Of a DNA stretch of 35,477 nt, positions 14,861-32,655 are shown in pieces. A program made the translations under genes and the position numbers. Source of the DNA: Candidatus Woesearchaeota archaeon (GTDB lineage: Archaea; Nanobdellota; Nanobdellia; Woesearchaeales; UBA10216); NCBI GenBank assembly GCA_018303115.1, contig JAGVYT010000029.1, positions 1-35,477 on the forward strand. The letters are read 5' to 3'. Each line of letters starts with the position of its first letter. Position 1 is the stretch's first letter. Under the pieces are notes generated by a model, which had not been told where the DNA came from, made no database searches, and saw only the letters and a list, made by a program, of their open reading frames with translations.

Positions 14861-14956
14861 CGGACCCGCAGGGATTTTCGCTTTGTTTCGAACCCTGGAC
14901 CTAAAGCTTTCTTTCGCTAGAAGGCTTTCGCTCTGTCCAAGCTGAGCTACGAGTCC
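14861..14956 (-). tRNA. tRNA-Arg (TCT) with two small insertions/introns (anticodon loop, 9 nt; T-loop, 12 nt)
   Basis: All stems pair: GGACTCG/CGGGTCC, GCTC/GAGC, AAAGC/GCTTT, CAGGG/CCCTG; anticodon loop is 16 nt (CTTCTAGCGAAAGAAA), T-loop 19 nt (TTCGAAACAAAGCGAAAAT). Confidence 0.82.
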
Positions 14957-31408: not shown

Positions 31409-32404
31409 TTATTTTTTCTTTAAAACGTCAATTACGCTCAGCCCCTCGTGGGAGAGCAGTATAAGCCCTGTCAGGGTTGCAAGCAGGTCCTTGAACCTTA
31501 TTATCAAAGAGAGGGCAATGCCTACGCTTGGAACCGCAATCAGGCTGAACACAGAGAAATAGCCTGCTTCCTGCACGCCAAAAGCCGCTGGAATCGGGAT
31601 TATGGCTACAATGGAAGTTGCTATTATGCTGAGGAGTATTATTGTGACAGAAGCCTCGAAGCCTATGCTGAGAAGCGCCAGCTTATACTGAAGAAACGTA
31701 ACAGGCCAGCTTAGCATTGAAACAAGGACAGCCTGCACAACCCCTTTTTTTCTTAAGCGCAGAAACTCAACCATGGAATCCTCAACAGTTGCTATTTTTC
31801 CGGTAAGTTCCTTAAAGAAGCGCAGCCTGATTAGTGATGAAAAAACCCGGAAAATGAAGGAAATGGGCCCGAGACGGCTGATGAGGGTTGAGTAAAAGAC
31901 CACTAAAAAAAGGATGGCAAGCAGTGAAATGGTTAAGGCAAAGCCAGCAACCTGTTTTGGCAATGCAAAAAACAGAAGCATTGAAATGAGTATCACTGAC
32001 ATGAGCACGGCATCTATCGACATTCCAAGGGACATCTCTATCAAAACAGAGGAATAAGTGTGCCCGGCCTTAATTCCAAGCTTTTTCTTCAAAAGAAAAC
32101 CCCTGACAGGCTCGCCCCCAACCCTTGCAGCAGGAGTCAGGTAGCTTATTGCAGTCCCGATAATCCTGTACCTTAAAAGCAGCAAAAAAGGTACTTTGAG
32201 CCCCTGATACTTAAGAACAGCGGACCACCTCCAGGTGGAAATGGCATGGAGGACTGCTGTTGCCAACAGGAAAAGCGCAAGGTAAGAAAGCGAGAACTTT
32301 CTGAAAGGCTCAATGATTTGGTCAAAACCGGCAAACGCGAGAACAATGACAAAAAGCAAGACTCCGATAACAACTGACGCCGCTGCAACCAGTTTCTTCC
32401 TCAT
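31409..32404 (-). CDS. Flippase-like/LPG-synthase-TM (UPF0104-type) integral membrane protein
   Basis: Multi-TM; RYRIIGTAISYLTPAARVGGEPVRGFLLKKKLGI and PAAFGVQEAGYFSVF; start moved to MRKKLVAAASVV because the ORF-track start lies in a tRNA intron. Confidence 0.85.
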   Translation of the reverse strand: MRKKLVAAASVVIGVLLFVIVLAFAGFDQIIEPFRKFSLSYLALFLLATAVLHAISTWRWSAVLKYQGLKVPFLLLLRYRIIGTAISYLTPAARVGGEPVRGFLLKKKLGIKAGHTYSSVLIEMSLGMSIDAVLMSVILISMLLFFALPKQVAGFALTISLLAILFLVVFYSTLISRLGPISFIFRVFSSLIRLRFFKELTGKIATVEDSMVEFLRLRKKGVVQAVLVSMLSWPVTFLQYKLALLSIGFEASVTIILLSIIATSIVAIIPIPAAFGVQEAGYFSVFSLIAVPSVGIALSLIIRFKDLLATLTGLILLSHEGLSVIDVLKKK

Positions 32405-32427
32405 CTTTTTTGCCTTTAATATTTTAG

Positions 32428-32573
32428 CGAGCCTGCAGGGACTTTCAAAGGAAGGTGAGATTTTTGGCAGTTTGTTGCTAATCAACATACCTGTTATTTG
32501 TTCGCCTTCTTTTTCGAACCCTGGACCTAGAGGTTAGGAACCTCTCGCGCTGATCCAGCTGCGCCACAGGCTC
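32428..32573 (-). tRNA. tRNA-Arg (CCT) interrupted by a 71-nt T-loop intron (32442-32512)
   Basis: 5' part GAGCCTG..GCGC/GCGC..AGAGG-TTCCTAA-CCTCT..AGGTC-CAGGG-TTCGAA; 3' part T-CCCTG-CAGGCTC-G at 32441-32428; acceptor and T stems pair perfectly across the insert. Confidence 0.85.
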
Positions 32574-32655
32574 GTAAAGATGACTGTTTGTTCGCAATTC
32601 TTTAAAAACTTTCTTCTCATAAATTATTTAAGCAGCCGATTCATGGCGCTGTAAG

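What the first reader, a model, noticed from the sequence alone, without database searches (positions are those of the whole stretch)
32428..32573. tRNA-Arg(CCT) split by a 71-nt intron in the T-loop
The gene looks truncated after TTCGAA, but the exact 3' complement (T-CCCTG-CAGGCTC-G) lies 71 nt further along the minus strand. The intron ends are complementary (GAAGG...CCTTC), consistent with a hairpin that brings the exons together. T-arm introns in archaea are non-canonical, described mainly in Thermoproteales-type genomes. Simple annotation would likely miss this gene.
Basis: partly seen in the sequence, partly recalled or inferred. Interest (0 to 1): 0.85.

Follow-up and report, generated by a model that had tools for sequence, protein, structure and literature searches.

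The report
T-loop intron in archaeal tRNA-Arg(CCT)
This transfer-RNA gene from a tiny uncultured archaeon (a Woesearchaeote) is interrupted near its 3' end by a removable 71-letter insert that standard gene finders miss; the same kind of insert turns out to sit in about twenty tRNA genes of this genome and in many of its relatives.

Summary
Confirmed. Minus strand 32573-32428 is a tRNA-Arg(CCT) gene with a 71-nt intron (32512-32442) between positions 59 and 60 of the T-loop. Removing it gives a perfect 75-nt cloverleaf that ARAGORN calls tRNA-Arg(cct); the interrupted gene is missed by ARAGORN and by Rfam's cut-off. The junctions fit a bulge-helix-bulge (BHB) cut by the archaeal splicing endonuclease. 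The organism is a Woesearchaeote (DPANN). The gene, its T-arm intron and the downstream gene are conserved in 10 further genomes (59/60 in eight, 53/54 in two), with 59/60 intron lengths of 13-105 nt. Across about 250-300 genomes of the order, T-loop position 57 covaries with its intron partner (A-U 141, G-C 109, G-U 9, A-C 10; p about 1e-51), which supports the BHB central helix. This genome carries about 20 T-loop introns. Some are nearly identical between different isotypes, and ours resembles the one in tRNA-Arg(TCG), which indicates intron transposition. BHB introns at 59/60 are already known, so this is a new member of a known kind. I found no description of their abundance in Woesearchaeota, served by a single EndA gene lacking the loop linked to broad specificity. 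Splicing itself is inferred; no RNA data exist.

The parts
32513..32573 (-). tRNA-Arg(CCT) exon 1 (acceptor 5' strand, D arm, anticodon arm, variable loop, T-stem 5' strand, T-loop TTCGAA); anticodon CCT at 32538-32536
32442..32512 (-). 71-nt intron at tRNA position 59/60
   Evidence: intron at this site in 8 further genomes of the family
32428..32441 (-). tRNA-Arg(CCT) exon 2: T60, T-stem 3' strand CCCTG, acceptor 3' strand CAGGCTC, discriminator G
32512..32523 (-). 5' half of BHB: T-stem CAGGG, central helix TTCG, 3-nt bulge AAA; predicted cut between 32513 and 32512
   Evidence: covariation
32436..32447 (-). 3' half of BHB: central helix TGAA, 3-nt bulge AGT, T-stem CCCTG; predicted cut between 32442 and 32441
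32601..32608 (-). TATA-box-like TTTTTAAA ending 27 nt upstream of the tRNA 5' end; similar AT-rich box in relatives
   Evidence: by eye
31409..32404 (-). downstream LPG_synthase_TM gene, likely start 32404; the ORF finder extends it to an ATG at 32488 inside the intron
   Evidence: synteny
14861..14956 (-). second T-loop-intron tRNA in the window: tRNA-Arg(TCT), T-loop intron of 12 nt plus anticodon-loop intron of about 9 nt

Best explanation
This is a functional tRNA-Arg(CCT) gene carrying a non-canonical archaeal tRNA intron at 59/60. In the precursor, T-loop bases 54-57 (UUCG) pair with UGAA at the intron's 3' end. The T-stem forms the outer helix, the intron ends (AAGAAGG/CCUUCCUU) form the inner helix, and AAA and AGU are the two bulges. 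The splicing endonuclease EndA cuts after the second base of each bulge, and RtcB joins the exons into a 75-nt tRNA that decodes AGG. Shown: sequence, cloverleaf, BHB complementarity, conservation of the site, covariation, and presence of EndA and RtcB genes. Inferred: transcription, cleavage, ligation, and transposition as the origin of this intron (it matches the tRNA-Arg(TCG) intron of the same genome).
For: Perfect spliced cloverleaf, recognised only when spliced. Fold z = -3.9 with the cloverleaf and BHB-like arm intact. Intron at the same site, with the same downstream gene, in 8 other genomes of the family, and at 53/54 with its own canonical BHB in 2 more. Intron sequence and length vary (13-105 nt) while the T-stem stays fully paired. 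Order-wide covariation of base 57 with its intron partner: 141 A-U, 109 G-C, 9 G-U, 10 A-C, odds ratio 171, p 1.5e-51. Inner-helix pairing exceeds shuffled introns (2.36 vs 0.66 consecutive pairs, 0 of 2000 permutations). EndA gene closest to N. equitans alpha, with Y, H and K aligned to the active-site triad; RtcB gene. AGG is the commonest Arg codon in the window's main ORFs (129 of 280). Intron homology to tRNA-Arg(TCG) with U-to-C at the base facing G57.
Against: No RNA data. RNAfold prefers a central helix extended by two A-U pairs; the strict 4-bp/3+3 register is 4.2 kcal/mol worse in this gene, although the extension does not fit the homologous tRNA-Arg(TCG) intron. Tree relatedness inflates the covariation p-value. 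The MAG is 96% complete, so a second gene could be missing.
Confidence: 0.95

Rival explanations
1. A dead tRNA gene disrupted by an insertion, with AGG read by tRNA-Arg(TCT) through wobble.
For: tRNA-Arg(TCT) exists in the window (14861-14956). No expression data.
Against: Both exons pair perfectly, relatives keep T-stem pairing while the intron varies, the splice motif covaries, and AGG is the favoured Arg codon. The tRNA-Arg(TCT) gene has a T-loop intron itself.
Confidence: 0.03
2. Two separately transcribed half-genes (a split tRNA) joined in trans, as in Nanoarchaeum equitans.
For: Trans-splicing of tRNA halves is known in N. equitans (abstracts of PMC2237900 and PMC3491384), whose EndA alpha subunit is the nearest solved relative of this one.
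Against: The halves lie 71 nt apart, in order, on one strand, with 13-105 nt between them in relatives; a TATA-like box lies before exon 1 and no separate promoter for a 14-nt exon 2 is apparent.
Confidence: 0.01
3. A mobile self-splicing intron (group I or II) rather than a protein-spliced BHB intron.
For: Group I introns are reported to be widespread in archaea, in a paper that names Woesearchaeota (PMC6125680). Introns appear to move between tRNAs here.
Against: 71 nt is too short for a ribozyme. Rfam finds no ribozyme family in the window. The boundaries fit a BHB.
Confidence: 0.01

Closest known systems
Non-canonical archaeal tRNA introns at 59/60, 56/57 and 53/54 (Crenarchaeota/Thermoproteales; review PMC4090602)
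   Same: Same insertion site, BHB junctions, several introns per tRNA, similar introns in different isotypes suggesting transposition (Fujishima 2010, as cited there)
   Different: Here in Woesearchaeota; the T-loop is a heavily used site (about 20 in one genome); the EndA lacks the crenarchaeal loop and no beta subunit was detected
Non-canonical tRNA introns of Atabeyarchaeia/Freyarchaeia (Asgard; PMC11291895)
   Same: Many non-canonical and multiple introns in tRNA genes of uncultured archaea outside Thermoproteales
   Different: Different phylum; positions not compared here
Nanoarchaeum equitans tRNA processing (split tRNAs, (alpha-beta)2 EndA)
   Same: Nearest solved EndA relative is the N. 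equitans alpha subunit (3iey_A, E 7.6e-36)
   Different: Contiguous intron, not split halves; no beta-subunit gene detected in this genome

Membership tests
Archaeal BHB tRNA intron (non-canonical position 59/60) | Removal restores a standard tRNA | tested here: met
Archaeal BHB tRNA intron (non-canonical position 59/60) | 4-bp central helix with 3-nt bulges on opposite strands, cuts after the second bulge base | tested here: met
   TTCG/TGAA with AAA and AGT; pair 57 covaries order-wide. Caveat: RNAfold's optimum adds two A-U pairs to the central helix
Archaeal BHB tRNA intron (non-canonical position 59/60) | EndA and RtcB genes in the same genome | tested here: met
Archaeal BHB tRNA intron (non-canonical position 59/60) | Excision and ligation observed | not testable with these tools
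   no RNA data
Split (trans-spliced) tRNA | Exons encoded at separate loci | tested here: not met
   71 nt apart on one strand
Self-splicing group I/II intron | Ribozyme core | tested here: not met
   71 nt long; no Rfam ribozyme hit
(alpha-beta)2 or epsilon-2 broad-specificity EndA with CSL/ASL | Second subunit or fused domains, plus CSL/ASL insertion | tested here: not met
   One 175-aa gene; no insertion where Aeropyrum pernix EndA (3p1z) carries one, by alignment; no second subunit at E <= 0.001 in this genome, and at E <= 10 in this genome and its family only one strong gene per genome plus weak extra hits, of which the one opened lies by metabolic-enzyme ORFs. A divergent beta subunit is not excluded

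The most novel reading that the evidence does not exclude
Woesearchaeales are a second major centre of tRNA intron gain, focused on the T-loop 59/60 site, with introns transposing between isotypes, and they achieve this with a single-gene EndA lacking CSL/ASL. Intron-position diversity would then not require a broad-specificity enzyme, because strict BHBs can be built anywhere in the tRNA.
Probability: 0.5. Interest if true: 0.65.

Novelty: new member of a known kind. Interest (0 to 1): 0.5.

Why it matters
tRNA gene finders used on DPANN genomes can miss these genes (here ARAGORN and Rfam's cut-off did), so reported tRNA sets and completeness may be too low. The order-wide set of T-loop introns gives hundreds of natural BHB variants for testing what EndA recognises. 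It also provides, outside Thermoproteales, apparent cases of introns copied between tRNAs, and a possible exception to the proposed link between intron diversity and loop-bearing broad-specificity EndA.

Tried and rejected
A scan of viral contigs with the neighbouring protein found no relative. A candidate EndA beta subunit among weak Pfam hits in relatives was rejected: the locus opened (L165) holds ORFs that read, by eye, as transketolase halves and prephenate dehydratase. The idea that TTCGAA...CGAA is a target-site direct repeat was rejected, because with A57 the intron ends in TGAA, not CAAA: complementarity explains both, duplication does not. An attempt to find our long intron in 40 relatives used a gap range that excludes 71 nt; it would catch only the Arg(TCG)-length version, and found it only in this genome. 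C29:9025 matched the motif but gave no clear cloverleaf and is left out of the count.

Full report
Observation. On the minus strand, 32573-32428 reads GAGCCTG-TG-GCGC-AGCTGGATCA-GCGC-G-AGAGG-TTCCTAA-CCTCT-AGGTC-CAGGG-TTCGAA, then 71 nt, then T-CCCTG-CAGGCTC-G. Spliced, it is a standard 75-nt tRNA-Arg(CCT); ARAGORN accepts the spliced form and finds nothing in the unspliced one. Rfam's tRNA model sees only a truncated 25.4-bit match, below the 29-bit cut-off. The precursor folds much better than shuffles, with all tRNA arms intact.

Junctions. The splice point that gives the consensus T-loop TTCGAAT falls after the second base of two 3-nt bulges, AAA and AGT. They flank a 4-bp helix, TTCG/TGAA, with the T-stem outside and AAGAAGG/CCTTCCTT inside (one C bulged). 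This fits the strict BHB definition (two 3-nt bulges separated by a 4-bp helix, PMC6379350). RNAfold's optimum extends the central helix by two A-U pairs; the strict register costs 4.2 kcal/mol more. In the homologous tRNA-Arg(TCG) intron the extension cannot fully form, while the 4-bp helix is strengthened from G-U to G-C.

Who it is. The ten best named relatives found through the downstream protein are all Candidatus Woesearchaeota MAGs. The own assembly is 0.99 Mb in 45 contigs, 96% complete.

Conservation. A pattern for the anticodon-to-T-loop segment found this gene in 8 other genomes of the family. All have an intron at 59/60, with lengths of 13, 19, 24, 32, 37, 46, 50 and 105 nt. The named loci L036-L040, L042, L044 and L045 appear to be the same sequences. 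Two further named genomes (L041, L043) have the intron at 53/54, again with a canonical BHB (CCAG/CTGG, bulges GGC and AAT), so that the whole T-loop follows the intron. The downstream LPG_synthase_TM gene is in place in all these. Two more distant genomes of the order have no T-loop intron in this tRNA but appear to have a D-loop insertion (L025 and L026).

Order-wide test. The pattern GGTTCRA-N8..38-TGAAAGTCC hit 154 of 295 genomes of the order, many several times; the reversed-pattern control gave roughly 16 hits in total. With CGAAAGTCC it hit 74 of 247. If the central helix is real, base 57 should follow the intron base: A57 with U, G57 with C. Counted by hand from the printed lists (one search's list was cut off by the tool): A-U 141, G-U 9, G-C 109, A-C 10; Fisher odds ratio 171, p 1.5e-51. 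Relatedness inflates p, but the hits span dozens of families. In 30 of these loci plus the Arg(CCT) set, inner-helix pairing exceeds shuffles (some rows are duplicates of one genome). In other orders of the class, 12 of about 71 genomes matched, close to background except for a few genomes with several similar copies.

This genome. A parser for complete cloverleaves found 12 T-loop introns: Ile(TAT), Arg(TCG), Gln(CTG), Gly(TCC), Val(CAC), Lys(TTT), Tyr(GTA), Asp(GTC), Trp(CCA), Pro(CGG), Arg(TCT), Arg(CCT). Motif searches and reading by eye add about ten: probable initiator Met, Ser(CGA), Ser(GGA), Glu(CTC), Pro(TGG), two Val-like, an Ile(GAT)-like and two less certain ones. Several also have anticodon or D-loop introns. 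Identities of the by-eye set are provisional. Val(CAC), Tyr(GTA) and Gln(CTG) junctions look relaxed rather than strict.

Intron movement. Introns in Pro(CGG) and Ser(GGA), and in Ser(CGA) and Glu(CTC), are nearly identical although the tRNAs differ. Val(CAC)/Tyr(GTA) and Arg(CCT)/Arg(TCG) are clearly similar (z 7-17 against shuffles, intron 3' ends excluded). The Arg(CCT) and Arg(TCG) bodies are only 52/75 identical, and same-genus relatives carry unrelated short introns in Arg(CCT). Copying of an intron between these two genes after the genus split is therefore the simplest reading. Similar transposition is reported for Thermoproteales (Fujishima 2010, cited in PMC4090602).

Machinery. One EndA gene (175 aa, L024) matches Pfam tRNA_int_endo and is closest to the N. 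equitans alpha subunit; Y, H and K of the M. jannaschii (1a79) enzyme are aligned (that these are the active-site residues is from general knowledge). It lacks the insertion present in A. pernix EndA, taken here as the CSL. No second subunit was detected in this genome or its family. RtcB is present. Literature ties CSL/ASL and (alpha-beta)2 or epsilon-2 enzymes to broad specificity and to diverse introns (PMC6379350, PMC12397907). The strict BHBs seen at most T-loop junctions here would be within reach of a narrow enzyme; this is inference.

Novelty. Introns at 59/60 are known (PMC4090602), so the gene is a new member of a known kind. Searches of the open-access library for Woesearchaeota, Pacearchaeota or DPANN together with tRNA introns returned no description of these. 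Subscription papers, preprints and supplements were not searchable, so novelty of the order-wide pattern is provisional. tRNAscan-SE 2.0's non-canonical intron models were built from Cren-, Eury- and Thaumarchaeota introns; whether it finds these genes was not tested.

Noticed in passing
window 14861-14956 (-): tRNA-Arg(TCT) with a 12-nt T-loop intron and an anticodon-loop intron of about 9 nt; missed by ARAGORN, found by Rfam.
   Followed up: partly
G000:C14:14271-14375 (L008): tRNA-Ile-like gene whose anticodon reads TAT after removing an anticodon intron; tRNA-UAU is reported as nearly absent in archaea (PMC6000648).
   Followed up: no
G000:C23:13325 (L170): tRNA-like gene with long variable arm but GAA at the anticodon position, with a partial repeat of the same segment just upstream.
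   Followed up: no
G000:C22:6343 (L169): Probable initiator tRNA-Met with several introns, including one in the T-loop.
   Followed up: no
G301, G337 (other orders of the class): Several T-loop introns sharing ATAAGGATTGCATCCTTATCAACCTGCAA, which suggests recent intron copying in another order.
   Followed up: no
window 31409-32488 (-): The LPG_synthase_TM ORF can be extended by an in-frame ATG inside the tRNA intron; automatic annotation may overlap the tRNA.
   Followed up: partly
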